The notes beneath the pieces were generated by a model that made no database searches, was not told the DNA's origin, and saw nothing but the letters and a program-made list of their open reading frames with translations. A stretch of 64,000 bases of DNA from Marchantia polymorpha subsp. ruderalis (taxonomy: Eukaryota > Streptophyta > Marchantiopsida > Marchantiales > Marchantiaceae): the NCBI GenBank assembly GCA_037833965.1, contig AP031353.1, forward strand, positions 13,518,501-13,582,500, written 5' to 3'. This document shows positions 4,069-30,235 of this stretch, one piece after another (positions within the stretch are counted from its first letter, which is position 1; the number at the start of each line of letters is the position of its first letter). The position numbers and the translations under genes were made by a program.

Positions 4069-4091
4069 CCTCTATTGCGGGTTTCAGTGGA

Positions 4092-5198: not shown

Positions 5199-5311
5199 GT
5201 GATACCTTTGTGTGTGGACACTCTCGTTCCTTGTGTATGTATGTGTGAGTTGTGAGTAGAGCATGTCAGCGATGTATGATGTATGGCGATACTGAGTCGC
5301 ACGACAGCTAG
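5199..5311 (+). repeat. LTR fragment of the methyltransferase element
   Basis: It starts TGATACCTTTGTGTGTGGAC directly after a purine-rich tract, as a 3' LTR should. It aligns with the reverse complement of 17684-17823, an independent copy of the same LTR family. The fragment stops where the tandem-duplicated unit begins, so the LTR is probably incomplete here. Confidence 0.6.
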
Positions 5312-5344
5312 CAAAGTTTCATGGATTAAAATTATAACTTGTCC

Positions 5345-6213: not shown

Positions 6214-7840
6214 CTATCTCCATGAGATCTACATCTCACATCAGCAGTGTTGCATGTACATAACATAGCTTTGATAACGTTGTTAAGAGGAAAATAGTAG
6301 AGCTGAAGATCACGTCCGTTCCAATGGCTGCTATCACTAAATAACCTTAACCTAAAACAAGAATTTTCACATTGTTTGGTTTAACTTTGGTTAAAGGCTT
6401 TCCAGAATTGATAATAAAATTACATACCGTCTCATGAATGTTACCAATCAACATAAGTCGGATATCTATTAATATTGTTAATTAAACAAACTTCATATCA
6501 AGTAAACCAAATATTTAACTTTACTTGGCAAACGCTCTCTGTAATAGAACCCAATGTGCTGTCTCATTATCCATCAATTAAACACAAAATCAAAATGGAT
6601 AATTCAAAGGAAGATTTAGATCCAGAATTCATCTTCAAATAGTCAAAGACCTTGTCACCCAATTCATCAATTAGTAACTATGATCATACAATTGCTGCCC
6701 AAAACAATCCTAAAATTAGCCTTCTCAGAAGAACTTTTATGACTCTATACTCCTTTTAAGTGTTGAAAACAATTTTGAAAACCTTCAAGAAAAATTTCAG
6801 CCAAAACGCTCAAGTGGTCTAGAAGTTATAGCCCTTTCAAGATGACTATCTTACATTGTAAGCTTCAAGCACATCTCCCACTCTTTCATTTTTCACGGAC
6901 ACAAAAAGTGAATATACTCTCACTCTTCTTTAACGAAATGTTAAGAATACCTTGAGGTTATCCATTGCTAAAATCCCAAGATCTAATGTCACTCTAGCTC
7001 AAAATTAGACAAGTATTTTTCAATGGAACATTTGAGCTTCTACAAAATCTCTCAAAAAAAACGTAATTTTTCAACTTACACAAGTCTTGAACCGTTTAGT
7101 CAAATCTTACAATATTAGAATGGATCTTAGTGAACTCAAAATATATCTTTTGAATCTAAACTCAGAAGGATGTGCCTAATAGTTGTGAATCTCCTCCCAC
7201 ATGAGGTTAACCCGGCCAACTCCACAACTAAGTCACAACTCAAAATTTCAGCCCATATGCTTTGGAGTAATCTACTTTTGTCCAACCAACCTATACATAT
7301 ATTTATATAAAAAGGTCATCAAAAAAACTTTCTTATGGTGACTTTTTTCTTTCTCACGTAGTTTTGTTTAACTTCTCTAGCTTCAAAAATTCCCTGTACA
7401 TTTTGTAGAAACCAAATCTTCTAACTTTAGCTAAGTACTTAAACTACTTATCTACGTTACTTTATCTAGATTAAGAATAAGATAAACTATCCATTTACAA
7501 GTACATAGTCATTCGTGACCCAACTAAATACACTTGTTACTATAATAATATACTTGTTAATATATATTAATTACTATTAATTAGCCCAAACATATAAGGT
7601 TAAGAGTAATAGATATGCTTCACAACAAAGCTCTGGTGCTTGGTTGTTTGGGTACTTTCTTGATTTTTTTGTATGAATCTTCTACTTTGATATTCTTCCT
7701 CACTCTATCACATTTTCGCTGACTAAAATTGCAACATACAAATTTTATAATAGCGCTAATTTAATTTATCAAATCTTAGTAAATTTTGATGAAAATGTTA
7801 TAAATTTTTGCTTTATTTTAAAAATTACTTCTTATACAAC
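6214..7840. other. AT-rich non-coding part of copy A; no gene seen
   Basis: AT-rich sequence with dense stops in all frames, paired almost base for base with 23574-25190 in copy B. It likely represents old copia LTR or leader sequence plus spacer. A minus-strand primer-binding-site-like motif (gctttgataac, near 6269) hints at a buried LTR boundary, but I cannot delimit one. Confidence 0.4.
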
Positions 7841-7959
7841 AAAATTGTACGTAGTTTTGACTAATGACTTAAAGCAAAAAATTATGAAATCATTTTTTTC
7901 ATTTGTTTTATTTAAAAAAACACTAAACGCAAAAAATAATCAACTCTGTATAATTGAGT

Positions 7960-9065
7960 ATATTAAATTTATTACGATTGAAATGTTTGAAAAAATTGAA
8001 CTTAAGTTGACTCAAGTTAGATTTATACTTGATATGAGAAAAAATTTGAGCTCTCTTGAAATATTAGATTCAAAACATATCTCTAAGAAATGATTGCTTG
8101 AGGTAAAACGTCATGAGATTAAATTAGGAGGTCATGAGTACAACAATATATACATGCTATTGTATATTACTATTTATGGTAAAGTCAATTTTACTTGATT
8201 TTGAGTTAAAGTGTCTGATGTATGGCATTCTAGCCTAAGACACATGGATAAGATGTACTGAATAGGTTTAGGCGATAAAAATTTGTTACATGATAAAGGT
8301 TATATGACAAAGAGTTTTCTGAACATTGAGTGGTGGACATCATAGTCAAGTCTTGTTTGTTGAAACTCATAATTTCAAAATTTTATTTGATTATGTACAT
8401 AGTGAGATGTAGAGATTCCCTCTATGCAAAATTGTACCATGTTCACTTTATTGATGAATACTCAAGGGAAACTTTTTTCCACAAGAATATGAGTTCTTCA
8501 TAACTTTTTAATCCAAATTGAGATTGAGATATGTACATATTCATAATGGCGGAAAATATATTTTTGAAAATTTTTGGATCTTTTGCAAAGAGTAGTGAAT
8601 TTTTTGCCATCTGATCATTAATATTATGTTTCTAAGAGGTTCAATAAAAAATGTTGAAAAAGATGCATAGTTGCTTGAGCTAGTCTGATTTTTCATATGA
8701 ATTTTGAACTAAAATGATCAATTGTGTAGTATATTTGGTAAATCTTTCTAATTCTAGTGCAATTAATTTTTTGACACCGTTTGATATGAGACCAAAATAG
8801 TTGATTATTTATAATTGATTGAAAATATCTGATCGTTTGGCTTATAATTTCACATCTAAGGAGAGTAGTTTCAAGCTGGATATTACATTCAAACAATGTT
8901 GTTTTATTGGTGTTGTTAATGATGTAAAGGGCTATAGACTATAGTAGTATGTAAAATTATTGTAAGTAGTGATGTTTTCAACCTCCTCAACTTTCAAATC
9001 TTCACTCAAAGATTTTGTTGAGAAAAATATTAAACACTTTGTGATTAATAATGTGAAATTATTAA
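7960..9065 (+). mobile_element. Copia fossil, gag-pre-integrase and integrase part (copy A, left half)
   Basis: Translation shows the gag-pre-integrase signature ('VRFILDMRKNLSSLE', then 'VWHSSLRHMDKMY'), integrase-core landmarks (a 'FDYVHS' stretch, 'YIDDYSR'-like and 'HNGG' motifs at 8.4-8.56 kb) and the end of the integrase module ('KGYRL', near 8.93 kb). The element is heavily decayed, with well over ten disruptions, and is old. Its continuation lies at 18745 after the inserted cluster. The counterpart in copy B is 25290-26440. Confidence 0.7.
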
Positions 9066-9486
9066 CTACACAATTGTGGTTACGTAGTTTTTCCAAATTT
9101 TTTTTAAAGATTAACTTTGGGAAGTAAAGGGTTAGTAATTTCAAACTTTTAGAATAGGAATAGTCAAAAGAAGAGTAAAGAGTGGATTCTGGAGACGACG
9201 TTGAGTAGGAGTAGTGAATAGACAGAATCTCAGTAGAGCTCGGTGTGCTCTTTCCAATGAATCCAATAATGCTGGAAATTCTTAGCTACAAAGGTATGTA
9301 GTGGAGGATATGGATCGACAAATGCATAGTACCGTCTCTCACAAACAGTCTTCAGACTTTGGCGTTAGCTCCTTCAGTGTTACGGAAGAAGAGTCTTCGG
9401 CGAAGAATCTTTGCCGAAGTAAAAGACGGCGTCGCACGGGAAGGAAATTCAAACACTTGTACCGTCAATTTGCCTAGGTGTACGAT

Positions 9487-9880
9487 TGTAACACTAGAAA
9501 AACTCACTCGAAGATAGAAACGTAAACTCTGAAGATGATAGATACCAACAATGGTTCTACTCTCCCTTATATAGCTCTCACCAACAAGTACAAGGAGATA
9601 AGATCTCCATCATCCATCTCACTCCTCGTGGATGGATGACGTGGCGGATAATCCTAACAAGCACACGGATCGCTGACGTGACGCTCCCAACTAACACACT
9701 CAATCCTTACCTACAAGCACACGGATTGCTGACGTGGCATTGTCAACTAACACATCCATTTTGTACCTACCAAGTGCGCGGATCGCTGACGTGTCAGCTA
9801 TGACTAGTGCACACTAAAGTATCTATATCAATATTTAGAGTAACCTCTACTTTAGTTCTAACTAACTAAAGATGGTTACA
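9487..9880 (-). repeat. 3' LTR of the chromovirus
   Basis: 394 bp, about 98% identical to 15092-15498 outside two small indels. Read on the - strand it starts TGTAACC and ends GTGTTACA. It carries four ACGT-core boxes (CACGTCA on the - strand; + positions 9637-9643, 9674-9680, 9730-9736, 9787-9793) upstream of a TATATAA-type box at 9566-9575. A purine-rich tract (AAAAGGAGAGAGG on the - strand) abuts it at about 9881-9896, as expected for a polypurine tract. Confidence 0.9.
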
Positions 9881-9971
9881 AACCTCTCTCCTTTTAAGAT
9901 GCAACGTCCTCGTTGCACATACGTTCAAACTCCTGAACTATCAAAAGTGCATTTGCTAAATTTTTAGCTAG

Positions 9972-11182
9972 TTACCAAGTTGATTCATACGATGGATAGC
10001 CTTTCCATTGAATCAAATACTCTACTTTGGGATATTTATGATCTCGAATACGTTTCTTGAGTATCTTTTCTACCTCATACTCCTCATGATCTGCTATCAA
10101 GGTTGGAAGAGGAGGTGGTGCTGGTTGGTTGGTGCATTGTTTTGATCGTGGTACATGTTTTCGCAATCGTGACACATGAAATAATGGGTGTATTTTTATA
10201 TGTGACGGAAGTTCCAACTTGTATGACACTTCACCAACACGCTTCAAAACCAAAAATGGACCAATGAACCTAGGGTTCAACTTTGGTGTTCCTACAAGAG
10301 ACAAATTTGTTGCAGATAACCAAACGTGATCTCCAACCTCAAAAACCACTTCTCTACGATGAGCATTGGCATGATGCTTTTGCCGATTATGAGCTATCAC
10401 CAACTTCTCCCTGGCCTGATGTAGTCCTCGGTGAATGTGCTCCACAAACTCGTTGACTGCTGCAACTTTGATCGAAAAATTCTCTCCTTTGGGAAGTCTC
10501 ATCAAACTTGAAGGAGTTATAGTATGAGCTCCATACATAAGAAAAAATGGAGACACTTTTGTGGATGCATTAACAAAAAAGTTATATGCAAATTCCACAA
10601 GTGGCAAAAGGTTGTCCCCCTCTTCTTGCTCTTCTAATGTGAATGCTCGTAGCATATGCTCTATGGTTCTATTTGCCCTCTCCGTTTGTCCATCAGTTTG
10701 AGGGTGATAGGCCGTTGACATTGCTAGTTTTGTTTTGAAAAAACTGAACAAAATTTTCCAAAATAAATTAGTGAAGTGAGTACCTCTATCCGTGATTAAC
10801 ATTTTGCTTAAGCCGTGATTCACAAAAACTGCATCTAGATACAATTGAGCTAGTTGTGGAGCTGTTATTGTTTTTGTGGTTGGCCTGATGTGAATCAACT
10901 TGCTCAATTTGTCCATAAAAACCACCACTGAATCATGTCTTAACAAAGTCTTTGGTAACTCACATACAAGATCCATGGTGACATGTTCCCACCGCTGTTC
11001 GGAAATAGAAAGAGGTTGTAATAAACCCGCTGGTTTTTGATTACTTGCCTTGTTTTGTTGACAAGCAACACAATTTCAAACATAAGACTCCACATCCTCA
11101 CGCATTTTGGGCCAATAGTACACTCGTTGTATACTCTCCACGGTTTTTTCCACTCCCACATGACCTGCAATGGCTGTGTCAT
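9972..11182 (-). mobile_element. Chromovirus integrase and chromodomain region
   Basis: Fossil part of the element at 9487-15498. Reading leftward: the zinc-binding end of integrase (around 11.05-11.18 kb), the catalytic core with 'VVVFMDKLSKLIH', 'LITDRGTHF' and 'YHPQTDGQTERANRT' (about 10.6-10.98 kb), a GPY/F-type module ('GPFLVLKRVGEVSYKLELP', about 10.2 kb) and a C-terminal chromodomain ('EVEKILKKR...YLIQWKGY', about 9.97-10.08 kb). Integrase inserts the cDNA copy, and in this clade the chromodomain biases target choice. The 334-codon stretch 9972-10976 is the longest open piece of the element. Confidence 0.85.
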
Positions 11183-11459
11183 GACTTTCTGCCAAAATCA
11201 TTGTGCGCAAATCGTGATCTTGTGGAATCCTTATACGCTGATTGTAAAACGCCAAACCTCAAGATTTCTCTGCCTTTCCAGTGTGTAGTGCCGGAGTGAT
11301 CTCTTCATCCTCCTTTGTGGCTTGTGACATCTTGCTCCACCAATCAGCCTGAATTTTCACTTCTGCAACATGATTCAAACAAGTCATGCGTGTGAGAGCA
11401 TCTGCAAGTTGCTTCTTTCCCTCCACGTACACAATCTTCATGTTGAAGCATTGACGCCA

Positions 11460-12908
11460 CTATGCCCATCGAATTTGTCGTTTGGACAGATCCTTCTTAG
11501 TCTCCAAATAAACCAAGGGTTTATGATCAGTCTCCACCACAAACTCCTTATCACCCAAGTAATGCTTCCAATGTTTGGTTGCCAACACAATGGCTAACTC
11601 CTCTTGTTCTGTCGTGTGAAAATTTTGTTCCGCCGCCACCAACTTTTGAGAATAGAAAGCAACTGGATGTCATCGATCCTCCCATTCTTGTTGAAGCATG
11701 CCACCTACTGTTGTACCTGATGCGTCAGTAGCTAACTTGATAGAACGGTTAGGATCATATCACTTGAAAATAGGTGCTTGTAACAAAGCATCTTTCAATG
11801 CTTGAAAAGCTAACTCTTGAGATGTTCCCCATCTCCATTTTTGACCTTTTCCCAACATGGAAGTCAAGGCCTGAGCTAGGCGAGCAAAACCTTTCACAAA
11901 TCTACGATAGAATCCAATGAGCCCTAGAAAACACTTCAATTGAGTTTGATCCTCAGGTGCTATCCATTTCTAAATGGCATATATCTTCTCACTCATCACT
12001 TGGATTCCTGTAGCTGTAACTCTATGACCCAAGTAATCTACTTCTGACTTGCCAAATTCACATTTTGAAGCTTTGGCATACAATTGATTGTCTCTTAAAA
12101 CTTGAAGTACCTCTCGTAAATGACTTCTATGATCACTCAAAGTTTTGCTATACACTAATATATCATCTAGAAAAACAATGACAGATTTATCTTGATAAGG
12201 GCAAAAGATATCGTTCATCAATTCCATGAATGTAGCAGGTGCATTAGTGAGACCAAAAGGCATCACTAGACACTCAAAGTGTCCATACCTAGTACGAAAA
12301 GCTATCTTGTGGACATTTTCATATGCAATACGAATTTGATTGTAGCCGCTTCTCAAATCTAGCTTGATGAAGTACTTCGCTCCTTGAAGTTGATCAAACA
12401 AATCATCCATACGAGGTAATGGATATTTTTTTTTCACCGTTTTCTGATTCAACCCGCGATAATCGATGCATAGTCTCATGGATCCATCCTTCTTCTTCAC
12501 AAAGATAACTGGAGCTCCATAAGGTGAAACACTTGATTGAATGAATACTTTGCTCAACATCTCTTCCACTTGAGCTTTGCATTCTTCCAATTCGTTTGGA
12601 GCCAAACGATATGGAGCTTTGCAAGTTGGTGTACTTCCAGGTATAACCTCAATCTTGTGATCTACTCTCCTCTTTGGTGGTTGTCCTGCAGGTAGATCAT
12701 CTGGAAAAACATCTTTATACTCCATAAAAATGTCGTTCAAGTACTCCAAGATGTAAGGTTTGTCCGTGGACCCAATATCTCTTATAAGTCCAAGGAAACA
12801 TACATCATCTCTAGAAATGGATGATGTACCCATCACAAAGAGGGGTAAATTCATATTTTGAGATCTAATTCTATCTCCATAGATCTTCCATCCACTATTT
12901 GTAATCAT
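11460..12908 (-). mobile_element. Chromovirus reverse transcriptase and RNase H region
   Basis: Fossil part of the same element. The reverse-transcriptase domain (about 11.97-12.8 kb) shows '[14 protein letters not shown]', '[16 protein letters not shown]', '[10 protein letters not shown]' and the catalytic '[12 protein letters not shown]'. RNase H follows leftward (about 11.46-11.7 kb) with 'EQEELAIVLATKHWKHYL' and 'VETDHKPL'. These are classic Ty3/gypsy pol signatures. The region is interrupted in several places. Confidence 0.88.
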
Positions 12909-13057
12909 TTTTCTTCTCCAATCTAACTTCGGATTATATTACTCCATCCATGGTATTCCAAGGATGACATCATATCAAGCTAAACGAATTACGCTCCATT
13001 CAATGCTTTCCTGGTATCTACCTATGGATAATTCTACACTCCGTGGTAGTGTTTCTA

Positions 13058-14477
13058 TCATTTCAATTTGCCCGTTGTCAATTCAACTTCTTCACTCACG
13101 TCCTTCATGAACATCAAACCTAACTTGATAGCAACACTCTTTGATAGAAAATTCTCAGTTGCTCTAGGATCAATTAAAACTCTCACCTTGTGTACTTTCA
13201 TGAAATCAGTGACAATGAGTTGAGCTTGCTTCTTACTCCTTTCATGAGCTCCCAACCATTGCCTTCTTCCAACCTCGCCTTTTCTTCGTTTTGTAGAACC
13301 AGTAAGGCCGCGAGGCAAGTTTACTGGTGATCTTCATTTCCCGAAACTTCTTCCTTCATCTCTTCATACTCTATCCCCTCCATGTTGTTGAACGCTGCAT
13401 GGGTTTTCCTCCTTGTGGTGTCGGCCGAATTCGACAAAACTTGGCAATGTGATCCATTCATCCACATGCATAGCATTGACGATTGTCACAAACTCCAGCT
13501 CCTCCTCGAAGCATTCCATTATTTGAATAACCTTCTTGCAAATTTGGAACTCCTGGTCGCTGAATCTCACATCCAAATCTTGGTGGTGGTCCTCTTGTTG
13601 GTGCAAAACCTTCTCTACGTCGAAGGTTTCCCAACTCCATCGATGTTGGACCAGATGGATCTCAAAAATTACTTACTGGTTCACCGTGTGTGACACCAAA
13701 AGCACCCGAAATTCGTTGAGCAATTGCAATTGTTTCATTCACAATAGATGGATTGCTTACCATCACCTCCTTTCGAATTCAATTCTTCAAGCTTCGTTTG
13801 AACACGTCCAAGGCTTCAGCTCCACTAATATCCATGATAGATACTTGAAGATCACAAAATTCTTCAATGTACTCATGAATACCTCCTTTTTGCTTCAGAT
13901 CCCACAACTTCATTCTTGCAGTTTGAAGAGAATCCACCGCTTGAAACTTTTGCAGAAGTACTTCCTGCATTCCACTCCACGAAATGGTAGCACCTCGTTC
14001 TGAAAGCATTCTCTCCCATGTTGTATACCATGTGAGAGACTTATCCATAAGATAAGATCTCATGAACATTCCTGCAATATAATCAAAAACATGAAAATGG
14101 GATAAATGAATATTCATCCTCATAATTCATCACTCTAACACTCCCATTGCTCTACTCCCTTTGTAAGCTTCCACCTTAGAGGATTTTCACATTTGAAGCA
14201 AAAGATTTGTTTGATCTTCAATCTCTTCCAGACGTTTCCTATTTGCCTCTGTTGCATCAATAGTAGTTGATTCTGGCTGAACTTGGGAAGCTTGAACTTG
14301 AGGTTCAACTTCCATCTCTCCAACTCTCTCTCTCTCTACTTTCTCACTCTCCAATGCGAAGATTTTATCTTCCATGGCTTGCTGATTGGTATGACCATCT
14401 ACTATCGCTTTTATCAACTCCTTCATCTCCGCCATGATTGCATTGAGAACCTCGCCCATATCGATTGATGTACCCAT
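13058..14477 (-). mobile_element. Chromovirus gag and protease region
   Basis: Fossil part. Gag starts near 14477 with a coiled-coil-like N-terminus ('LNAIMAEMKELIKAI'), continues through a capsid-like stretch ('LLQKFQAVDSLQTARMKLW', about 13.9 kb) and a cysteine-rich zinc-knuckle region (about 13.45-13.6 kb). The protease region (about 13.06-13.3 kb) has a 'VRVLIDP...ATENFLS' active-site neighbourhood. It is broken into several frames. Confidence 0.75.
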
Positions 14478-14494
14478 GCTTTCTCACACTCTCT

Positions 14495-14957
14495 CTAATA
14501 CAAAATGAGTATAATCACTATGTGACCTCTCAACAAAGGAGTCACAAAAGGTGCAGGTGACTCTATCACAGCTCTATAGTACTCCTCTCCATAATTCCTC
14601 ACAAGAAAATCTCTCCATATCATCTTCTGTCGATATATTGTTCTAATCTCTACATAAGTGTTGAACCGAATCGGGACAGGTGGTTCGCGATACAAATCCA
14701 TGATACATTCAGGTGAGAATGTATATAGTACAATTCCAAGTCTCTCCATAAGTAACTATTGGAAGAATCAGTGGCACTCTCGATTCCATCACTCTAGTCA
14801 TAAAATCTGCACCCCAACAAGCCACAAGATACATCCGAAAATGATGTTTCTCCATGCAACAAAGGTGAATATCGAATAGGTTAGGAATTGGCCAATGCGG
14901 TACTGGATTCCTGTCAATTCCGTCCATATCTGCAAAACCACAATTTCCCCCTTCCAC
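14495..14957 (-). mobile_element. Chromovirus leader frames with a repeated ~60-residue unit
   Basis: Between the 5' LTR and gag lie two open frames (14709-14957, then 14495-14749) that resemble each other. Both have a V-P start, a central 'R..LV....G' stretch and a shared 'V.ES..P...P....G' ending. I do not recognise the domain. It may be a tandemly repeated leader peptide or an N-terminal extension of gag. A second clade member with open frames would show whether it is coding. Confidence 0.4.
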
Positions 14958-15091
14958 CTCTCTCTACATGCAGATGAATGACCTCTGCTAGCCTCTATAC
15001 ACTCTCAAAACTGCACTCCATCATCACTCACTTGCTATTCCATGAGGGGTAATCCACACTCAAGGAAAGAGCAAGGTTGCTCTAATACCAT

Positions 15092-15498
15092 TGTAACACT
15101 AGGGTTAGAAAGAAACTCACTCGAAGATAGAAACGTAAACTCTGAAGATGATAGATACCAACAATGGTTCTACTCTCCCTTATATAGCTCTCACCAACAA
15201 GTACAAGGAGATAAGATCTTATCTCCACCATCCATCCCACTCCTAGTGGATGGATGACGTGGCGGATAACCCTAACAAGCACACGGATCGCTGACGTGAT
15301 GCTCCCAACTAACACACTCAATCCTTACCTACAAGCACACGGATTGCTGACGTGGCACTGTCAACTAACACATCCACTTTCTACCTACCAAGTGCGCGGA
15401 TCGCTGACGTGTCAGCTATGACTAGTGCACACTAAAGTATCTATATCAATATTTAGAGTAACCTCTACTTTAGTTTTAACTAACTAAAGATGGTTACA
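15092..15498 (-). repeat. 5' LTR of the chromovirus
   Basis: 407 bp, with the same ends and the same four ACGT boxes and TATA motif (about 15180-15187) as the 3' LTR. One base inward lies the primer-binding site at 15079-15090, TGGTATTAGAGC on the - strand, close to the initiator-methionine tRNA-complementary site TGGTATCAGAGC used by many plant LTR elements. Confidence 0.9.
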
Positions 15499-15503
15499 AC
15501 GAT

Positions 15504-18701: not shown

Positions 18702-18744
18702 TTTACCATTATGCTCAATTTTGGTACTTATGTGTTATTACAGT

Positions 18745-19900
18745 AATTATGATGATTTAGATAAATCAAATTCTTGAAGAGCAAAAATAAAAAAACTAGA
18801 CTTTTGTTGAAGAGATTTGAACTTCTAGACCAAAAGATAGAGATCTACTATAATTATCTACTATGAGATCATCAAATTGAATCAGAAGTACTGATGTAAA
18901 GTATACATTATGGGTTGATTCATACATTATTGAGAATTGTAATATTGAAATTAAGTATGTCAATTGCATTGCATTTAACTTGGAAGAAGAATAAACTTCT
19001 TTTTGTAAAGAAGCTCAAAATTTGTCAATAAACTTAAATGCAATATTGCTATGGAACTTGAGATGTAGTCCATGGTTAAAAACAAGAACTCTAAGCTATT
19101 GGAGCTTCAAAATAATCAAAATTTGACTGATTGCAAGTTGATATGCAAGCTCAAGGACAATCTGATTTATGACAAGAGAAAAATCTTCAAAGTTAGGTTT
19201 TTTCTCACACAACATAATATTGTGGACTAGAATAAAATTCTCTAACCCATGACAAAATATAATACAATCTTATTGATATGAACATTTGCTCCAATAGTTA
19301 GTTTGGTTATGAATCAAATAGATGTAATAATAACATTTACAATAGTACATTAACATGAAAAAACCAATTTACTTGATTAAAAAAATTCAAGAAAATTTAA
19401 TTTATGAATTTTTTAAACCTTATAATAATCAAAACAAGTTGTTACTCAATTCAATGAAATTTTGATAAGTTATAAAAAATTATTATAGAAAATATGTATG
19501 ATGGGTGTTGTTATAGAAAATGAAATCTTTAATTTCATTATTCTATTCTTTACATAAATAATATAATCATTTTCGTGTATAATCAATCTTATGTTGACTT
19601 GCAAGAATCATTTGAACTATGCATTAAAGATGAATACTATAAAGAAATCCAAGATGATTTCATTCAATTAATAATTAACAAATTATAAAAATTTGAATTT
19701 TCAAATAAATAGGAATATCCGATTATCTCCAATGTGTCTCCTGTAGAGTGAGGTTCACTCATGTTTCATATGTACAAGACCTCACATAAATCACTCAATG
19801 GAAGCTGTAGCTCAGTGATTGTATAATTTCATCACATTGAAGATGTACGAAGAGAGTATTAAGGTTTTCTAAAGTCACTCTTTGCATATATTTAGAATAC
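18745..19900 (+). mobile_element. Copia fossil, reverse-transcriptase part (copy A, right half)
   Basis: This continues the fossil interrupted at 9065. Landmarks of copia reverse transcriptase are readable: 'CKLICKLKDNLIYDKRKIF' near 19.14-19.2 kb, a 'QIDVIT' motif near 19.3 kb, and remnants of the downstream RNase H approach near 19.75 kb. It is heavily broken and aligns with 26447-27560 in copy B at roughly 90%. Confidence 0.65.
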
Positions 19901-20136
19901 AGAAAGCACAATTCAAAAACTGTTTGCTTCATCAGACACCACATGAAAATCTGTGGCCAATGCCCGTTCTACTAGAACTCCCAGCACTCCGAACGCGACC
20001 GAAACCAACAGTGGAATGATTCTGCCCTGCCCATAAATGCTTCGTCTCGTACCTTACAGACAGATGTGAGCTCAAAGTATGCACCATACAGTCTACAACC
20101 TAGCTCACTCTCCAGATTCCTGCCAACCCTCAGCCG

Positions 20137-20331
20137 CTAGAACCATAACAACAGGTTGAGCTCTCTGCTCCTGGTTTCAATGCGCTCGAAGAAGATATTG
20201 GCACGAAATGCAGCAAATGGAAGGGGAACAAGGTGAGGACTTGAATAAGAAACAAACGGCAAGAGTGTATCGAGCAAGGAACGGGCAAGTACGTATAGAT
20301 TGTGGGCCTGGGACTTCACCGAAGTCGCCAT
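20137..20331 (-). other. Small minus-strand ORF shared by both gene copies
   Basis: A 64-codon frame starting MATSVKSQAHNLY. The related frame in copy B (27809-27991) stays open for 60 codons and ends with the same residues 'RSRELNLLLWF', but part of the middle is read through compensating indels and the copy B version has no ATG at the equivalent place. It sits ~1 kb upstream of the LURP start, divergent to it. I recognise no domain. It is more likely untranslated flank than a gene. Confidence 0.2.
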
Positions 20332-21147
20332 GTTACTCTCCAGCAGTGAAGACCAGTTTCGCTCTGGCTTGCTAGTGGAGCTCCTCAGATCAAAGAGTCC
20401 AGTTGGGGCTCACTGGGCTCTTCACCCTTGCCTCTTCCGGCTGCACAGTGGGATTTGCAGTTTTTTAACCTCCCGAGTGTCTAATTTCGGCCTTACTCCT
20501 CTGCAGCGCAAGGTCAATTTCTTCGTCCATCAGCCTCTTGGTGTCAATTTGGACAATTTTCTCCTTGGGTTTACCCTTGCGAATGGGCTCGTAGCCATCG
20601 AAGATTCTGATTCTCTTCACCCTCCGCACAGGCACCATCGACTAGCGTTGCATTCTCTTCGAGGATGCAGCGGATCGGGCTGCAAGGCATGAGCCCTCAA
20701 GGTGTAAGAAGAGAAGTCGTTTATGGGCAGATTACGCAAAGAGAAGGGAAGGGATGACACGGGGGGCTGACCAGACCGCTTCCAAATGGACGCGTGAAGG
20801 CATTTTGTCACCCTTTGGAGTACGTTCTCAATTCTCTTTAATTGGACTTCCCGTTTACTTCTCGGAATGTGGACTGGACAGCAGCTCCCCTCGAAGGCGT
20901 TCTCTAATGGATCTCATCCAAAGCACGTAGCCGCGTCTCCACTTTCTGGGTCAAACAAGGTTGACCGGGTGATGATTGATCGAGAGCAGCATGTCGAGTT
21001 TTGTCACTTAAGGCGGACTTGCTCTCCCGACCGATCGATTGACCGCCTCTGCCAGCGACGAATTTTTAACTGAAAGCCTTCGTAGCAACTGGCTACGAAG
21101 GGGAAAGGGGATTCGACTGGTACACCGAAGCAGCCGAACGAGAGAAC

Positions 21148-21355
21148 TTATATAAGCTTTCCTGCTAAGCTTATAGTAGATAGAAAACCCAGACAGCGAA
21201 AACATCCGACCTTCCCTGTTGAGCTTCAGTGTACATACAAACAGACAGAAAACATCTGACCTTTCCTGCGCAGCTTCAGTGCACAGAACATTCAGACAGC
21301 GAAAATCTACAAGTTTTCTTACTGAGCTTCTGTGGATAGAAAATTCAGACAAACC
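21148..21355 (+). promoter_or_regulatory. TATA box and 5' leader minisatellite of LURP copy A
   Basis: A TATA motif 'cttatataag' (21148-21157) stands ~236 bp upstream of the start codon. It is followed by four imperfect ~50 bp units (core 'ttcctgctgagcttcagtg' then 'agaaaattcagacagcgaaa') filling the 5' leader to about 21355. Copy B has only two such units. Transcription start is inferred, not seen. Confidence 0.55.
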
Positions 21356-21392
21356 ATTCAATCGGCTAAGGAGAACGGACGAATTTGCAGCG

Positions 21393-22779
21393 ATGGCGAC
21401 CTCCACGCCTGACATACCGGCGCCTGTGAGCACGAGTTATTGTGTTCCACATTTGACAGAGTTCTCGGTGGAGAGCAAGGTGCTGACGTTGAATGGTGGC
21501 AAGTTTACCGCCAAAGATACGCAGGGTTATCTCTTATTCCAAGTACAGCGCAAGTGGCCCAGTCTCCACTCCAAGCATACCGTGTGCGATTCCATGGAGA
21601 GGCCCCTTGTCCAGGTGTCTAAGAAGGTAAATCTTGTTCGTCAGATGCTTACACTGTGCGATAGATCAGAGAAGGTTTCTTGGAGAAAGTCAGTCAATTC
21701 TCGTACCCATGAAGCAGCAAGGACAAACTAATTGAGATCAGGGGGTTTCCTGCCCTCTCTGTCTGAACAGAGTACCCGTTCATCTAGGTCTCAATTAACC
21801 TCGGACCTCCAGGACTCTGCCGTCTTGATCTAGCTCTATGGATGTTCGTTCAACGTGACCTAGGAATCCTGACAGCGAGATGTCGCCATCTACACCTCGC
21901 TTCTCGTTAACAATATAATTGTCTAAACCCACCGGAACTAGGTGAAATCCGACAGCAGTATTATTCACATAGATGACTAACTTGTATGCTGTGCTGCTTC
22001 TGATGATCAGCTAGGGGAGTGGCGCCCAACATGGGAAGCGATAAGGGCAAATGGTGACCAGCAACCAGTGTTTCTCATGAAGAAGTCAAGTTTGAATCCG
22101 CTAAATAAAACTTTCGATGTTTTCCTGGGAACAAACATTTCCATGAGCAGGCCCGACTTCACAATGAAACGCGAATTTTTTTCTAACAACTACACCATTT
22201 GCTACAACGACGAGCCCATAGCCCAGGTGAGCGTGCCTCCCTTCATTCAGTCTGTTCTCAGGGCTCCTCTGTGGCCATATTTCTCTAATCAATAAGGGTG
22301 CGGCCTTTTGCTGATCTCGGTAGAGTCAATGGTATATACGCTGAGCATCCTGGAAAGAAATTCTCCTGTCTGAAGCGTCATTCAATTTAGGATGCGCAGG
22401 GAAATCTTGGAAATGTTGAATTACGTCGTTCACATGATTACTATTGGTCAAAAGCTGTTATGTACACTGATCATATATCACTGTCCCAGGAGTTCATGAA
22501 TGAAAACAATTTTCAAACCTCTGACGTAAAAAACATTTTCTAGCATAGAAAAGTCGGAACTGCAACACAATTGAAGTGATTATAGAAAAGTTTTGTGCTA
22601 TCAAAGATCTCACGTACATTTCATGTTCCCTGATGCTGCAGGCTATTCGGAAACTAAGCTTTGGAAAGACAAGTTACATGGTGATAGTTAAGCCTGGAGT
22701 AGATCGAGCTTTCATTACCTCGTTGGTTGTGATAATTATAATAAGGATTAAGGAAAAGAAAAGGAGACGGGGTCGCTGA
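21393..22779 (+). CDS. LURP-one-related protein, tandem copy A (3 exons)
   Basis: Exons 21393-21626, 22011-22226 and 22642-22779, all GT-AG and phase 0, give 195 residues, the usual size of the LURP-one-related (LOR, tubby-like fold) family. The start ATG is the one aligned with copy B; the frame is open further upstream but that part is leader repeat. Family landmarks are the N-terminal 'VLTLNGGKFTAKDTQGYLLFQV' strand pair, 'FLMKKSS', 'VFLGTN...RPDF' and 'YMVIVKPGVDRAFITSLVVI'. In Arabidopsis, LURP1 is induced by the oomycete Hyaloperonospora and needed for basal defence; the biochemical role is unknown. Oddities: the canonical 'L.D.W' motif at the exon 2 start is strongly altered, exon 3 is five residues shorter before the Gly-Lys, and the C-terminus is a basic tail (IKEKKRRRGR) encoded by one arm of an inverted repeat. 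Confidence 0.85.
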
Positions 22780-22806
22780 CCTTTTCCTTTTCCTTTCCTT
22801 AATCCT
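22743..22806. repeat. Imperfect inverted repeat over the LURP copy A stop codon
   Basis: Left arm 22743-22764 (aaggattaaggaaaagaaaagg) pairs, with short bulges, with the pyrimidine-rich right arm 22780-22806; the loop contains the stop codon. The left arm encodes the basic C-terminal tail of copy A. Copy B lacks the repeat and ends instead in an acidic/polar tail. The unit 'aaatagcaggtt' is also directly repeated just downstream. Confidence 0.6.
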
Positions 22807-23029
22807 CATTAAATAGCAGGTTTTCCTTTCCTTATCAAATAGCAGGTTCTTATCACTTACAATTGTTAATAGATGTTTGCATCGGATAACCATTGTGGCT
22901 CAAGATTCCACGGCCATCAGTGTTTACATTTTGAATTCCAATGTCTGGTATCAATTTTGAGACTGAAAATTGTATGTAAAATTTTGGATGCAGTAAAGTT
23001 TCATGGATCAAAATTATAACTTGTCCAGT

Positions 23030-23270
23030 GATCATTCGCAGTCTTAGAACTTCTGAAACTTTAGAGTAACCAGAAGATCAAGTTCATAGATGTGAAGTTA
23101 GACTTCTTGAATGAAAATTTGGACAAAGAAATCTACATGGATGTATCCGTTGTCTATACCAATGTTGAGATTTTTTGTTGATTTAGATTAGAATATTATG
23201 GGTTGAAGCAAGCTCCTATGAATTGTCTTATGCACATTCATTTTGCATCAAAATTTAGTTCATTCTCACA
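23030..23270 (+). mobile_element. Copia reverse-transcriptase fragment (copy B)
   Basis: Counterpart of 5345-5580, with the same 'IDVKLDFLNENLD' and 'YGLKQAP' landmarks and about 6% divergence. A short broken fossil. Confidence 0.6.
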
Positions 23271-25289
23271 TCAAACATCACAATACACATACTCTAATAT
23301 ATCAACACAAGTGTTTCAATATTTAGTCCACTCTCATAACGTTATTCATTTCATGGCAGCCATCAATATGAAATGAAAGAACACATTATTGAGTTGATTG
23401 TTTTCATTTTATGCTTCTATGTATATATTATTACTATTATTATTATAATCTATTAGTATATATTTTATGATTCTATTATATATATTTAGATTCTTGCACA
23501 AGCTACTCTCCATCATAGCTGCACTAATTTGAGATAAAAAATCAAACGTATTTGAAACCTAATTCAAACTCTATCTCCATGAGTTCTACATATCACATCA
23601 GTAGTTTTGCATGTACATAACATAGCTTTGATAACGTTGTTAAGGGGAAAATACTAGAGCTCAAGATCACGTCCGTTCCAATGGCTGCTATCACTAAATA
23701 ACCTTAACCTAAAACAAGAATTTTCACATTGTTTGGTCTAACTTTGGCTAAAGGCTTTCCAGAATTGATAATACAATTATATACCGTCTCATGGATGTTA
23801 CCGATCAAAATAAGTCGGAAAATCTATTAATATTATTAATAAACTTCATATCACGTAAATCAAATATTTACATCTACTTCGCAAACTTCTCTGGAATAGA
23901 TTCCAATGTGTTGTCTCATTCTCCATCAATGAAACACAAATTCAAAATGGATAATCATATGCAGACTAGGATTATTTTTCTACAAAATCCAGAAATCATC
24001 TTCAAAAGTCAAAGACCTTGTCACCCAATTCATCAATTAGTAACTATAATCATACAATTTCTGCCCAAAACAATACTAAAATTAGTCCTCTCAAAAGAGC
24101 TTTTGTGACTCTATACTACTTTCGCTTATTGAAAACAAGTTTCAAAACCTTCAAGAAAAATTTCAGCCAAAACGCCCAAGTGGTCTAGTAGTTATAGCCC
24201 TTCCAAGATGACTATCTTCCATGGTAAGTTACGAGGACATCTCCCACTCTTTGATCTTTCACGGACACAAAAAGTGAATATACTCTCACTCTTCTTTAAC
24301 AAAATGTTTTGAATACCTTCGAGGTTATCCATTGCTAAAATCCCAAGATCTAATGTCACTCTAGCTCAAAATTAGACAAGTATTTTTCAATGGAACATTT
24401 GAGCTTCTACAAAATCTCTCAAAAGAACAGTAATTTTTCAACTCACACAAGTCTTGAACCGTTTAGTCAAATGTTGCAATATTAGAATGGATCTTAGTGA
24501 GCTCAAAATATATTTTTTGAATCTAAACTCAGAATGATGTGCCTAATAGTTTTGAATCTCCTCCCATATGAGGTTAACCCGGCCAACTCCACAACTAAGT
24601 CACAACTCAAAATTTCAGCCCATATGCTTTGGAATAATCTTCTTTTTTCCAACCAACCTATACATATATTTATATAAAAAATTCATCAAAAAACTTTCTT
24701 ATGGTGACTTTTTTCTTTGTCATGTAGTTTAGTTTACCTTTGTAGAAATCAAATCTTCTAACTTTAGCTAAATACTTAAACTACTTATCTACGTTACTTT
24801 ATCTAGATTAAGAATAAGATAAAATATCCATTTACAAGTACATAGTCAAACTTGACCCAACTAAATACACTTGTTACTATAATAATATACTTGTTAATAT
24901 ATATTAATCACTATTAGTTTGCATAAGCATATAAGGTTAAAAGTAGTAGATATGCTCACAACAAAGCTCTAGTGCTTGGTTGTTTGAGTAATTTATTGAA
25001 TTTTTTGTATGAATCTTCTACTTTCATAATCTTCTTCACTCTATCACATTTTCGCTGACTAAAATTGCAACATACAAAGTTTATAATAGCTTCTATTTAG
25101 TTTATCAAATCCTAAAAAATTTTGATTAAAATGTTATAAATTTTTGCTTAATCTCATAATTTACTTCTTATACAACAAATTGTAAGTAGTTTGAACTAAT
25201 GACTTAAAGCAAAAAATTATGAAATTAATTTTTTTCATACGTTTTATTTAAAACAACACTAAATGCAAAAAATTATCAACTTTGTATAA

Positions 25290-27560
25290 TTGAGTATATT
25301 AAATCTATTAAGATTGAAATGTTTGAAAAAATTGAACTTACATTGATTCAAGTTAGATTTACACTTGATATGAGAAAAAATTTTAGCTCTCTTGAAATAT
25401 TAAATTCAAACAGTTTTGAATGAAACTCTAAGAAATGAATGCCTGAGTTAAAAGCGCGTGATAACATTAAGTTAGTAGGACATGAGTACAACAATATATA
25501 CATGCTAGAGTATATTTCTATTTGTGGTAAAGTCAAATTTACTAGATCTTGAGTTAACTTGTCTCATGTATGCATGGCATTCTAGCCTAAAACACATGAA
25601 TAATATGTACTGAATAGGTTTAGGCGATAAAAATTTGTTACATGATATAGGTCGAATTGATTAAGAGTTTTAAACATTGTGTTGTGGACATCATAGTGAA
25701 GTCTGTATGTTGAAACTCATAATTTCAAAATTTTATTTGATTATGTACATAGTGAGATGTAGAGATTCTATAAAAAAGATTCACTCTTTGGAAAATTGTA
25801 ACATGTATACTATATTGATGATTACTCAAGATACTATTTTTCAAAAAAAATGAGTTTTTCATAACTTTATAATCCAAATTGAGATTGAGACATGTACATA
25901 TTCATAATGGCGGAAAATATATTTCTGAAAAAATTTATTTCTAAATTTGCGTCTATTGCAAAGAGGAGTAATTTTTCTGTCAATCTAATCATTAATATTT
26001 TGTTTCTACGAGGTTCAATTGAACAATGTTGAAAAACATGCACAATTGTTTGAGCCAGTCTATATTGTCATATGAATTTTGAACTAAAATGATCAATTCT
26101 GTAGTATATTTGGTAAATCTTTTCACTCCTAGTGCAGTTAATTTTTTGACACCGTTTTATATGAGAACAAAATAATTGATTATCTATAATTGATTGAAAA
26201 TATTTGGTTGTATAGCTTATAATTTCATATCTAAAGAGAGTAGTTACAAGTTGAATATTATATTAAAAAAATGTTGTTTTATTGGATTTGCTGGTGATAT
26301 AAAGGGCTATAGACTATAGTAGTATGTAAAATTATTGTAAGTAGTGATGTTTTCAACCTCCACAACTTACAAATATTCACTCACAGATTTTTTTGAGAAA
26401 AAAATTAAACATTTTGTGATCAATAATGTGACATCATTAATTCCATAATGATGATGGTTTAGATGAATCAAATTCTTGAAGAGAAAAAATCAAAAAATAG
26501 ATATCGTTGATGAGATTTGAACTTCTGGACCCAAAGTTATAGATCTACTATAACCATCTATTATGATATCATCAAAATGAATCAAAATCACTCTTGTAAA
26601 GTATGGATTATGGACTAATTCATACATTTTTGAGAATTGTAATATTGAAATTAAGTATGTCAATTGCATTGAATTTACATTGGAAGAAGAAAAAACTTCC
26701 TTTTGAAAAGAAGCTCAAAACTTTGTCAATAAACTTAAATGCAATATTGCTATGAAACGTGAGATGTAATCGATGATGAAAAACAAAACCTAGTAACTAA
26801 TGGAGATTCAAAGATTGCAAGTGGATATACAAGCTCAAGTACAATCTAGTACATGACAAGAGAAAAATATTCAGAGTTTCGTTTCTTTCTCACACAACAT
26901 AATAATGTGGACTAGAATAAAATTCTCTAACCCATGACAAAATATGATACAATCTGATTGATATGAACATTTGCTCCCATAGTTAATTTCGTTATGCATC
27001 AAATAGATGTAATTATAACATATACAATAATAAATTTACATGAAACAACCAATTTACTTGATAAAGAAATTCAAGAAATATTTTGAAACCTTTTAATAAT
27101 CAAAACAGGTTGTTACTCAATTCAATGAAATTTTGATAAGTTTATGTTAAAATTTAATTTTAGAAAATATGTATGATGTGTGTATTTATAAAAAATGAGA
27201 TCTTTAATTTCATTATTCTATTCTTTACATAAATGATATAATCATTTCCGTGAATAATCAATCTTATAATGACATGCAAGAATCATTTGAACTATGTATT
27301 AAAGATGAATAATTTAAAGAAATCCAAGATGATATCATTCAATTCCTAATTCATAAAGTATAGAATTGATTTTTCAAATAAATAGTAATATCTGATTATC
27401 TACAATGTGTTACCTGTAGAGTGAAGTTCACTCATGTTTCATATGTACAAGACCTCACATAAAAAAATCAATGGAAGCTCTAGCCACATGAAGTGATTGT
27501 CCAATTTCATCACATTGGAGATGTACGAAGAGAGTATTAAGGTTCTCTAAAGTCACTCTT
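25290..27560 (+). mobile_element. Copia fossil, integrase through reverse transcriptase (copy B, uninterrupted)
   Basis: Gag-pre-integrase landmarks near 25.35 kb, integrase near 25.75-26.31 kb and the reverse-transcriptase 'CKWIYKLKYNL' stretch near 26.81 kb occur in the normal copia order and spacing. It is a decayed, old element with well over ten disruptions. It shows what copy A looked like before the cluster inserted. Confidence 0.65.
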
Positions 27561-28391
27561 GGTATATATTTGGAATACAGAAAGCACAATTCAATAACTG
27601 TTTGCTTCATCAGACACCACATGAAAATCTGTGGCCAATGCCCGTTCTACTAGAACTGCCAGCACTCCGACCAAAACCAACAGTGGAATGCTTCTGCCCT
27701 GCCCATAAATGCTTCGTCTCGTACATTACAGACAGATGTGAGCTCAAAGTATGCACCATAGAATCTACTACCTAGCTCACTCTCTAGATTCCTGCCAACC
27801 CTCAGCCGCTAGAACCATAACAACAGGTTGAGCTCTCTGCTCCTGGTTTCAGAGCGCTCGAAGAAGATATTGGCTCGAAATGCAGCAAGTGGAAGAGGAA
27901 CAAGGTGACGACTTGAATAAGAAACAAACGACAAGAAGTGTATTGAGCAAGGTCGGAGAAGTACGTTTGGATCGTGGGCCTGGGACTGCACAGAGGTCGA
28001 AATGTTCCTCTCCAGCAGTGAAGATCAGTTTCGCTTCGGCCTGCTCGTGGAGCTCCTCAGATCAAGGAGTCCTGTTGGGGCTCACCGAGCTCTTCACCTT
28101 TGCTTCTTCCAGCTGCACAGTGGGATTTGCAGTCATTTTACCTCTCGAGTGTTTAAAGTAGGCAAGTGGTGCTGCTAGTGCTCCTGGTTCTCCTTGTGCT
28201 CAGCCAAGCCAAGCCATGCACTGCCACTGCCGCTGCTCGATGGGTTGCCCTGCACGTCGGAATGTTCATGATTGCGACCTCGAAGGCTCGACTGTGGACT
28301 GTGGATATCATCAACAGTGACCTTACTCCTGTACAGTAACAGGTCAATCCGTTCGTCCATCAGCCTCTTCGTGACAAATTGGACGCGTGAA

Positions 28392-28470
28392 GGAAATGTA
28401 CTTAGGCAATGTTGTCACTCTTTGGAGTGAATGTACTCCAAAGAGTTACAACATGCCCAAGTACATTTCC
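28392..28470. repeat. 79-nt hairpin gained upstream of LURP copy B
   Basis: Left arm 28392-28428 and right arm 28435-28470 are complementary at ~34 of 37 positions around a loop of about 6 bases. Copy A has only the sequence of the left-arm half ('ttgtcaccctttggagtac', about 20803-20823), so the right arm was gained by inverted duplication in copy B. It lies ~450 bp upstream of the start codon. Its length and pairing resemble a young foldback that could yield small RNAs, but nothing in the sequence shows transcription. Confidence 0.7.
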
Positions 28471-28785
28471 TCTTTGGTTGAACTTCCCATTTACTTTTCG
28501 GAATGTCGACTGGACGGCAGGTCCTCTCGAGCGCGTTCTCTAATGGATCTGATCCAAAGCACGTAATTGCCTGTCCACTTTCCGGATCACCCAAGTTTGA
28601 CCGGGTGCTGATTGATCGAGAGCAGCATGTCGAGTTTTGTCATTTATGGCGGACTTGTTCTCCCGAACGATCGATTGACCGCCTCTGCCGGCGACGCATC
28701 TTCGAGTTAAAGCCTTCGGAGAAATTGGCCACGAGCACAGAGGATTCGACAGGTGGACGCGTCCCGGGGCAGCGGAATGAGAGAG

Positions 28786-28895
28786 CTTATATGATCTTTC
28801 ATGCTGAGCTTCAAAGGATAGAAAATCCAGACAGAGAAAATATACGACTTTTCTTGCTCAGGTTCAGTGGATAGAATTTTCATGCAAACCATTCA
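28786..28895 (+). promoter_or_regulatory. TATA-like box and two-unit leader repeat of LURP copy B
   Basis: The motif 'cttatatgat' (28786-28795) aligns with the TATA box of copy A but is less canonical. Two ~50 bp leader units follow where copy A has four. The first in-frame ATG after them is 28917. Confidence 0.5.
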
Positions 28896-28916
28896 ATCGG
28901 CGACAGAGTAGGGACG

Positions 28917-30235
28917 ATGGCGAGCTCCACGGTTGGAATACCGGCGCCTGTTAGCACGAATTTTTGTGTTCCATATATGGCGCAGTTCATCATCGAGCAG
29001 AAGGTGTTGACGCTGAGTAGTGGCAAGTTCACGATCAAAGATCCGCAGGGTAATCTCTTGTTCCAAGTGAAGAGCAAGCTGCCCAGTCTCCACACCAAGC
29101 GGATCTTGTGCGATTCCAGCGAGAAGGCCCTTGTCTTCCTTTCTAGAAAGGTACATCTTGCTCTTCCGATGCTTACACTGTGACCCTGATCAGAGAAGGT
29201 TTCTTAGAGCGAATCACTGGATTCTCGTACACATGAAGCAGCAAGGAGAAATTAATTAAGATCATGGGGTTTTCTGCACTCTCTGTCTGACTGGAGTACC
29301 CGTTCATCTAGGTCTCAATTGACCTCGGACCTCCAGGACTCTGCGATCCGGATCTAGCTCTATGGATGTTCGCTCAGTGTACCTAGGAATCCTGACAGCG
29401 AGGATTCGCTATCTACATCTTGCTTTTCGTTCACAATATAATGGTCTAAACACACCTGAACTAGCTGTAATCTGACAGCAGTATTATTCACATTGTTTAC
29501 TAACTTGTCTGCCCTGCCGCTGCTGATGATGATCAGATATTAACGATGCACGACACATGGGAAGCGACAAGTGCAGACGGTGACGAGAAAACAGTCTTTG
29601 TCATGAAGAAGTCAGGTTTGGTTCAGCTCAAGCCATCGTTCCATGTTTTCCTGGGAACAAATACTTCCATGAGCAGACCGGACTTCACTGTAAAAGGCGA
29701 TTTCTTTCAGTTCAACTACACCATTTGCTACAACGACGTGCCCATAGCCGAGGTGAGGGTGCCTCCGTTGATTCAGTGTGTTATCAGGGCTGCATCCATA
29801 TCTCTCTAATCAATAAGATCTGCGCCCTTTCGTTGATGTCAGTAGAGTCAACTGTATACAAGCTGAGCATCCTGGAAAGTATTTCCCACGAAGTCTGTTA
29901 TCTGATGGGCATATGTACACTGATCATATATCACAGTCCCAAAAGTTCATGAACGAAAACAATTCTAAAATCTCTGATGTGAAAAAAACCTTTTAACCTA
30001 GAAAGTCGAATTGCAATGCAAGTAAAGTGAAGAGGAGGTTTGTGTGATCAACGAACTAACGTGCATTTCATGTTTCCTGCTGGTGTAGGCCAGTCGCAAG
30101 ATAAACGCTTCTGCTATCCTCGTTGGAAAAGATCAATACATGGTGACAATTCAGCCTGGAGTAGATCACGCATTCATTGCCTCATTGGTGGTTATTATGG
30201 ATCAAGTTGCACAAGGTGATCAGGCAGGATCTTGA
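28917..30235 (+). CDS. LURP-one-related protein, tandem copy B (3 exons)
   Basis: Exons 28917-29150, 29537-29752 and 30089-30235 (GT-AG, phase 0) give 198 residues. This copy keeps the family pattern better than copy A: 'LTLSSGKFTIKDPQGNLLFQV', 'ILTMHDTWEA' at the exon 2 start, 'VFVMKKSG', 'HVFLGTNTSMSRPDF', 'YNDVPIAE', and 'VGKDQYMVTIQPGVDHAFIA' with an acidic C-terminus. Intron 1 is 386 bp against 384 in copy A; intron 2 is 336 against 415. Over exons 1 and 2 the two proteins share 92 of 150 residues. Both copies are open and spliceable, so both look functional. The role is inferred from the Arabidopsis LURP1/LOR family: pathogen-responsive, tubby-like fold, exact activity unknown. Confidence 0.9.

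What the first reader, a model, noticed from the sequence alone, without database searches (positions are those of the whole stretch)
21393..30235. Exons of the tandem LURP genes are more diverged than their intron
Counting by eye, exon 1 differs at 53 of 234 bases (30 codons change the amino acid, 7 change only silently) and exon 2 at 48 of 216 (28 replacement codons, 7 silent-only). The first ~255 bases of intron 1 differ at about 35 positions (~14%), and gene-flanking and copia DNA at roughly 6-14%. Coding DNA evolving faster than its own intron, with no stops or frameshifts, is the signature of diversifying selection, not of decay. The family includes Arabidopsis LURP1, a pathogen-responsive defence gene, so an arms-race explanation is natural but inferred. 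Gene conversion limited to non-coding DNA, or intron constraint, is an alternative.
Basis: partly seen in the sequence, partly recalled or inferred. Interest (0 to 1): 0.82.

Follow-up and report, generated by a model that had tools for sequence, protein, structure and literature searches.

The report
Near-neutral exons in liverwort LURP tandem
Two neighbouring liverwort genes related to a plant defence gene differ more in their coding parts than in one of their introns, mainly because one of the two proteins has lost most of its usual evolutionary brake and that intron changes unusually slowly, and not because selection is proven to be driving the proteins apart.

Summary
The counts hold: exon 1 differs at 53/234, exon 2 at 49/216, intron 1 at 56/383. 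The inference does not. A-B dN/dS is 0.81 (ML 0.82; omega=1 not rejected, p=0.48). Neutral simulation expects 66.6 replacement codons; 58 are seen. Intron 2 is as diverged as the exons (71/335, p=0.66); intron 1 is the slow one, also against an unlinked copy. Part of the flank is only 4-6% different, so it is younger or homogenised.

A real oddity remains. The organism is Marchantia polymorpha. B resembles its M. paleacea counterpart (83%). A belongs to a group of six copies (A, G0, H, C, D, E) with omega about 1, against 0-0.32 in 21 control pairs of other LOR genes. Frames and fold mostly survive. Copy H, outside the window, joins an exon-1 block 37% different from G0 to an intron 0.8% different: gene conversion. 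Copy E is the pathogen-induced 'LURP1' of a 2026 paper. Most likely: asymmetric duplicate evolution under partial constraint, reshaped by conversion. Positive selection at a few codons is possible but unproven.

The parts
21393..21626 (+). gene A exon 1 (LOR/LURP-one-related)
   Evidence: 53/234 different from B
21627..22010 (+). gene A intron 1, the slowly diverging intron
   Evidence: GT-AG; 56/383 different from B; B's intron 1 matches 7 places of the genome, each at a copy of this gene
22011..22226 (+). gene A exon 2
   Evidence: 49/216 different from B
22227..22641 (+). gene A intron 2, about as diverged as the exons
   Evidence: 71/335 different from B plus 81 gap columns
22642..22779 (+). 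gene A exon 3, with a 5-codon loss shared with copies G0, H, C, D and E, and an altered tail
22735..22815 (.). near-perfect hairpin across the stop codon of A (31-base arms), weaker in G0 and D, not found in H, C, B
   Evidence: coordinates approximate
28917..29150 (+). gene B exon 1
   Evidence: whole protein identical to MPTK1_3g12640
29151..29536 (+). gene B intron 1
29537..29752 (+). gene B exon 2
29753..30088 (+). gene B intron 2
30089..30235 (+). gene B exon 3, full-length LOR end
   Evidence: aligns to the M. paleacea protein to the C-terminus
20834..21392 (+). promoter-proximal DNA of A; aligned windows 14-22% different from that of B
28470..28916 (+). promoter-proximal DNA of B
26440..28156 (.). 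duplicated intergenic DNA upstream of B, about 87.5% identical to 18744-20484 and only 4-6% different at about 27.5-27.9 kb: younger or homogenised relative to the genes
22992..26440 (.). duplicated intergenic DNA between A and B, matching 5310-9065 in pieces

Best explanation
Asymmetric evolution after duplication, in a patchwork locus. B (Mp3g12640) kept the ancestral LOR protein under constraint. The lineage of A and its relatives (G0, H on the same chromosome, C, D and E = Mp4g08800 elsewhere) lost most amino-acid constraint: about a quarter of codons are frozen and three quarters change at the neutral rate, so exons diverge as fast as silent sites and intron 2. Exons look faster than 'the intron' because intron 1 evolves at about half to two thirds of the intron-2 rate (constraint, or its own conversion), and faster than the flanks because parts of the flanking DNA were duplicated or converted later. 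The protein is still predicted to fold as a Tubby/LOR-like barrel and one member is pathogen-induced, so it probably keeps a defence-related role with low sequence demands. Shown: counts, omega about 1, asymmetry in residue changes, slow intron 1, conversion-like tract between H and G0, the step in the flank. Inferred: why constraint fell, and any defence role of A or B.
For: dN 0.257, dS 0.318, omega 0.81, ML 0.82, p=0.48 against 1; seven-copy tree omega 0.98; neutral simulation. Relative rate against M. paleacea: 37 changes unique to A, 11 to B, p=0.0002; same direction with 4 of 4 outgroups. A changes at invariant LOR sites 13/42 and variable sites 34/108 alike and in strands 22/70 and elsewhere 25/80 alike, while B avoids strands (6/70 against 20/80, p=0.009). 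M1a: 24% of codons omega 0, 76% omega 1. 21 of 21 control pairs have exons below both introns, omega 0-0.32. Intron 1 below intron 2 in A-B, E-B, A-E, A-C (p=0.032, 0.001, 0.003, 0.016) and G0-A (p=0.07) (the pairs share sequences, so they are not independent). H-G0 run of 87 informative columns, 0 of 2000 shuffles. Flank step upstream of B. Fold: pLDDT 84.8, best PDB match 1zxu.
Against: Pure loss of constraint would often have produced a stop: P(no stop in exons 1-2) is 0.07 for 75 neutral changes and 0.001 for 200, so some selection on the protein persists. Site model M2a beats M1a (2dl 8.22, nominal p=0.016 without H; 10.12, p=0.006 with H). H-G0 over the comparable CDS has more replacement than silent change (71/426.5 against 11/116.5, one-sided p=0.03), though H-A does not (p=0.13). 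Branch models cannot separate B's omega (0.73) from the rest (1.07), p=0.39. Slowness of intron 1 is only weakly localised (80-column window, 81 of 2000 shuffles), and the confidence intervals of dS (0.20-0.46) and intron 1 (0.12-0.21) just touch.
Confidence: 0.62

Rival explanations
1. Diversifying (arms-race) selection: exons of A, H, E and B were driven apart by pathogen pressure at some sites, with purifying selection at others averaging omega to about 1.
For: M2a class of 6-11% of codons with omega 3.9-7.1; open frames and kept fold; H exon-1 block, codons 15-63, with 31 of 48 aligned residues changed from A plus one inserted codon and 4 silent-only codons; H-G0 replacement excess, one-sided p=0.03; E (Mp4g08800, called LURP1) is reported as induced by fungal, oomycete and bacterial pathogens and linked to climate (PMC12890914, passages).
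Against: Pairwise and branch omegas do not differ from 1; the site signal vanishes without codons 28 and 79 (2dl 1.35), and simulations reach it in 1 of 36 under M1a and 1 of 36 under a doublet-mutation null; the recent pair A-G0 has exons 1-2 below introns (4/450 against 10/384 and 22/414) and omega 0.27, though only 4 changes (p=0.22); A's changes are not confined to loops; H block omega 1.16-1.24, one-sided p=0.34-0.45 against A, G0, C.
Confidence: 0.22
2. Gene conversion in non-coding DNA: introns and flanks were homogenised between copies while exons kept their older divergence.
For: H-G0 intron 1 3/384 beside an exon-1 block at 54/144 and the 87-column identical run; C, H and G0, on two chromosomes, share an identical stretch of intron 1; flank 4-6% next to promoter 14-22%.
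Against: For A-B the longest run is only 13 columns and lies in intron 2 (p=0.0035); intron 1 is equally slow against E, on another chromosome; intron 2 is not homogenised. The shuffle test is liberal: 11 of 15 pairs fall below 0.05, most with runs of 10-13 columns.
Confidence: 0.3
3. Simple pseudogene decay of the A lineage.
For: D has a 7-base shorter exon 2 with in-frame stops, C an extra base in exon 3, A and E lost five codons and the usual tail; exon 3 of A and G0 differs at 20/137; changes hit invariant sites freely.
Against: A, G0, H, E keep exons 1-2 open with no length change except one codon in H, while introns took 8, 13 and 11 length changes in A-B, E-B, A-E; 12-strand barrel predicted for the A protein with pLDDT 84.8; E is pathogen-induced.
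Confidence: 0.12

Closest known systems
LOR / LURP-one-related family (PF04525), Arabidopsis At5g01750 (1ZXU) and LURP1
   Same: A and B pass the Pfam cut-off; the predicted A model matches 1zxu best (E 3.8e-10, TM 0.67/0.80).
   Different: A-type copies lost five codons of exon 3 and the usual tail; omega about 1. In B. napus the duplicated LOR pairs that could be computed have Ka/Ks below 1 (PMC10264818, passages).
Marchantia LURP1 (Mp4g08800), copy E here
   Same: Protein P0009 has E's sequence; same exon-3 deletion, same near-neutral exons; reported as pathogen-induced (PMC12890914, passages).
   Different: On another chromosome, about 37 kb from an NB-ARC match. No expression data seen for A or B.
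Duplicated loci with introns homogenised by conversion and exons kept apart (primate opsins, MHC class I; recalled, from no call)
   Same: H-G0: near-identical intron beside a highly diverged exon block.
   Different: Within-block dN is not significantly above dS; no donor found in this genome.

Membership tests
LOR (PF04525) | Profile score over the curated cut-off | tested here: met
   95.4 (A) and 146.2 (B) bits against 24.5
LOR (PF04525) | Tubby-like beta barrel with C-terminal helix | tested here: met
   Predicted for the A and B proteins P0011 and P0001; A's model matches 1zxu, then TULP1
Genes under diversifying selection | dN/dS significantly above 1 | tested here: not met
   A-B 0.81, p=0.48; seven-copy tree 0.98, p=0.91
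Genes under diversifying selection | A class of codons with omega above 1 | tested here: inconclusive
   2dl 8.22; reached by 1 of 36 simulations under each null; rests on codons 28 and 79
Pathogen-responsive LURP genes | Induction on infection | not testable with these tools
   Reported for E (Mp4g08800), PMC12890914; no held paper text names Mp3g12620, Mp3g12630 or Mp3g12640
Conversion-homogenised introns with diversified exons | Conversion tract over intron adjoining diverged exon | tested here: met
   For H-G0; not for A-B intron 1
Conversion-homogenised introns with diversified exons | Exon block with dN above dS | tested here: not met
   H block 15-63 against A, G0, C: omega 1.16-1.24, one-sided p 0.34-0.45

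The most novel reading that the evidence does not exclude
A liverwort-specific, pathogen-responsive LURP clade that diversifies by patchwork: gene conversion keeps introns and flanks of copies alike while selection retains distinct N-terminal barrel segments (as in copy H), making the LOR barrel a variable recognition or decoy surface.
Probability: 0.15. Interest if true: 0.7.

Novelty: new member of a known kind. Interest (0 to 1): 0.42.

Why it matters
Other LOR genes of this genome are strongly conserved, and what the domain does is, to my knowledge (recalled), unknown. A clade that lost most constraint yet kept frame and predicted fold, with one member induced by three kinds of pathogen, is a tractable test case in a model liverwort. 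It is also a caution: exon-over-intron divergence alone does not show positive selection, because one intron and the flanks can be slow or homogenised.

Tried and rejected
Rejected: H exon-1 block as a double frameshift (block scores 82 in A's frame 0 against 14-32 in the other five); H block from an extant donor (DNA search finds only A, G0, C, D at 72-76%; the protein search's best match outside the seven copies is F at E 0.0014); intron 1 as a repeat or known RNA (7 genomic places, all at this gene; no Rfam hit in it up to E 0.5, and the 10 hairpin hits elsewhere are far below gathering scores); relatives in viral contigs (none). F as root for silent changes: saturated (NG86 dS about 1.9-2.3). 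Protein quartets for the age of the A lineage relative to M. paleacea: too few sites, no answer.

Rows dropped or corrected: three control pairs with L013 were out of register by one codon (they showed omega 0.93-1.10) and were redone (0.07-0.32); 24 of 45 control pairs did not pass that script's filter. The 5'-flank column is misaligned for G0 and not used. D's frameshifted exon 2 was set to missing in the codon trees. Two of ten counts differ slightly between alignments (intron 1 56 or 58, intron 2 71 or 72). Only 36 simulations per null were run. The structure alignments held 12 database proteins.

Full report
What is there. The window lies on contig C4 of a 241-Mb genome. Gene B encodes a protein identical to MPTK1_3g12640 of Marchantia polymorpha subsp. 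ruderalis and gene A one 99% identical to MPTK1_3g12630, so the organism is this liverwort. Both are LOR genes with three exons and two phase-0 introns.

Observation. A-B differences are 53/234 (exon 1), 49/216 (exon 2), 56/383 (intron 1) and 71/335 (intron 2). Exon exceeds intron 1 (p=0.003) but not intron 2 (p=0.66).

Test of selection. Over exons 1-2, dN is 0.257 and dS 0.318, omega 0.81 (bootstrap 0.51-1.31); ML omega 0.82, omega=1 not rejected, p=0.48. Random mutation to 102 differences (kappa 1.3, 3000 runs) gives 66.6 replacement codons (95% 59-74) and 14.2 silent-only codons; observed 58 and 14. So the codon counts are what neutrality gives. Silent sites (0.32, interval 0.20-0.46) and intron 2 (K 0.26) agree; intron 1 (K 0.17, interval 0.12-0.21) is the outlier. 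Intron 1 is below intron 2 also in E-B (p=0.001), A-E (p=0.003), A-C (p=0.016) and, not significantly, G0-A (p=0.07); these pairs share sequences and are not independent. E is on another chromosome, so local conversion is not needed for the slowness, although C, H and G0 share an identical stretch of intron 1 across two chromosomes.

Relatives in the genome. A search with A's gene finds seven copies and some short fragments (17 matches): A and B; G0 (95% identical to A) and H upstream of the window on C4; C and D on C3; E on C5. F on C6 is a more distant conserved copy. D carries a 7-base shorter exon 2 with in-frame stops, C an extra base in exon 3. A database protein shows that a D-like copy with an open exon 2 exists in another assembly (P0012). 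A, G0, H, C, D and E share the five-codon loss in exon 3, which sets them apart from B, F and M. paleacea.

Asymmetry. With the M. paleacea protein (83% to B) as outgroup, 37 residues changed only in A and 11 only in B (p=0.0002); for E 39 and 11, for H 52 and 8; two Riccia proteins and F agree in direction. Splitting dN in that proportion and assuming equal silent rates, omega is roughly 1.2 on A's side and 0.4 on B's; this is inference, and branch models do not separate them (B 0.73, rest 1.07, p=0.39). A's changes fall on invariant LOR sites as often as on variable ones (13/42, 34/108) and on strands as often as elsewhere (22/70, 25/80), whereas B avoids strands (6/70 against 20/80, p=0.009).

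How unusual. In two other LOR subgroups of the same genome (10 genes), 21 of 21 usable pairs (of 45) have exons less diverged than both introns and omega 0-0.32. A rapeseed survey reports Ka/Ks below 1 for the LOR duplicates that could be computed (PMC10264818, passages read). The near-neutral clade here is therefore a real oddity, though not one that proves diversifying selection.

Decay or function. P(no stop in exons 1-2) under neutrality is 0.071 for 75 changes, 0.045 for 90, 0.001 for 200 (2000 simulations each). Exons 1-2 took no length change in A-B, E-B, A-E while introns took 8, 13 and 11. The A protein's model is a 12-strand barrel with terminal helix, pLDDT 84.8, nearest solved structure 1zxu; the alignment used has only 12 sequences. 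M1a puts 24% of codons at omega 0 and 76% at 1. So constraint is partial, not absent. M2a improves the fit (2dl 10.12 with H, 8.22 without), but 1 of 36 M1a simulations and 1 of 36 doublet-mutation simulations reach the latter, and removing codons 28 and 79 leaves 1.35. The recent pair A-G0 has 4/450 in exons 1-2 against 10/384 and 22/414 in the introns, but its exon 3 differs at 20/137, mostly in the tail.

Copy H. H is 3/384 different from G0 in intron 1 and 36/414 in intron 2, yet codons 15-63 of exon 1 differ from G0 at 54 of 144 bases. Against A the block has 31 of 48 aligned residues changed, one inserted codon and 4 silent-only codons. From base 185 of exon 1 to about base 319 of intron 1, H and G0 agree at 87 successive informative columns, reached in 0 of 2000 shuffles. 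That shuffle ignores rate variation and is liberal: 11 of 15 pairs fall below 0.05, most with runs of 10-13 columns; the H-G0 run stands out by its length beside the diverged block. The block has high dS (0.42-0.45) as well as dN (0.51-0.54) against A, G0 and C, so it is an old segment beside converted DNA, not a burst of replacement alone. Over the comparable CDS replacement exceeds silent change in H-G0 (one-sided p=0.03) but not significantly in H-A (p=0.13). No donor was found. A protein from another M. polymorpha assembly carries the same block (P0013), so an assembly error is unlikely.

Flanks. A and B upstream DNA is 4-6% different at about 27.5-27.9 kb (G0 and B 2-7%), then unalignable at about 28.16-28.47 kb apart from a 64-base match, then 14-22% different up to the gene. 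Thus the flank is not of the same age as the genes and is no neutral yardstick.

Known work. PMC12890914 (passages read) lists LURP1 (Mp4g08800) among genes induced by Colletotrichum nymphaeae, Phytophthora palmivora and Pseudomonas syringae and linked to climate. P0009 shows this is copy E. No held paper names Mp3g12620, Mp3g12630, Mp3g12640 or MARPO_0040s0002 in its text; supplements could not be searched. That Arabidopsis LURP1 is needed for defence against Hyaloperonospora is cited in PMC10264818 and PMC8067046 (passages); the original paper was not seen.

Noticed in passing
L032:7842 to about 9220 (C4:13509842 to about 13511220), outside the window: Copy H: exon-1 codons 15-63 about 37% different from G0 and A between almost unchanged flanks; strongest exon-intron conflict of the family.
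   Followed up: yes
22735-22815: Near-perfect hairpin spanning A's stop codon (31-base arms), weaker in G0 and D, not found in H, C, B; looks like a templated quasi-palindrome change that rewrote A's C-terminal peptide.
   Followed up: partly
1495-5036: Two adjoining reading frames, the second with a C-5 DNA methylase stretch (PF00145) and a PHD finger (PF00628); the first looks gag-like with CCHC knuckles by eye but has no Pfam hit. Possibly a retroelement carrying a methyltransferase.
   Followed up: partly
9481-15499: LTR element: reverse transcriptase (PF00078), integrase and chromodomain frames on the minus strand between direct repeats 94-96% identical; lies in the intergenic DNA between G0 and A.
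   Followed up: partly
28391-28471: 81-base stretch that is its own inverted repeat (88%), in the unalignable step just upstream of B.
   Followed up: no
C5:11638400-11639020 and C5:11.675 Mb: Copy E lies about 37 kb from an NB-ARC match; the paper names Mp4g08790, the preceding gene number, as MpNBS-LRR11.
   Followed up: partly
C3:4139919-4355682: Cluster with 13 LOR exon-1 matches, some with stops; 10 genes from it served as the constrained control.
   Followed up: partly
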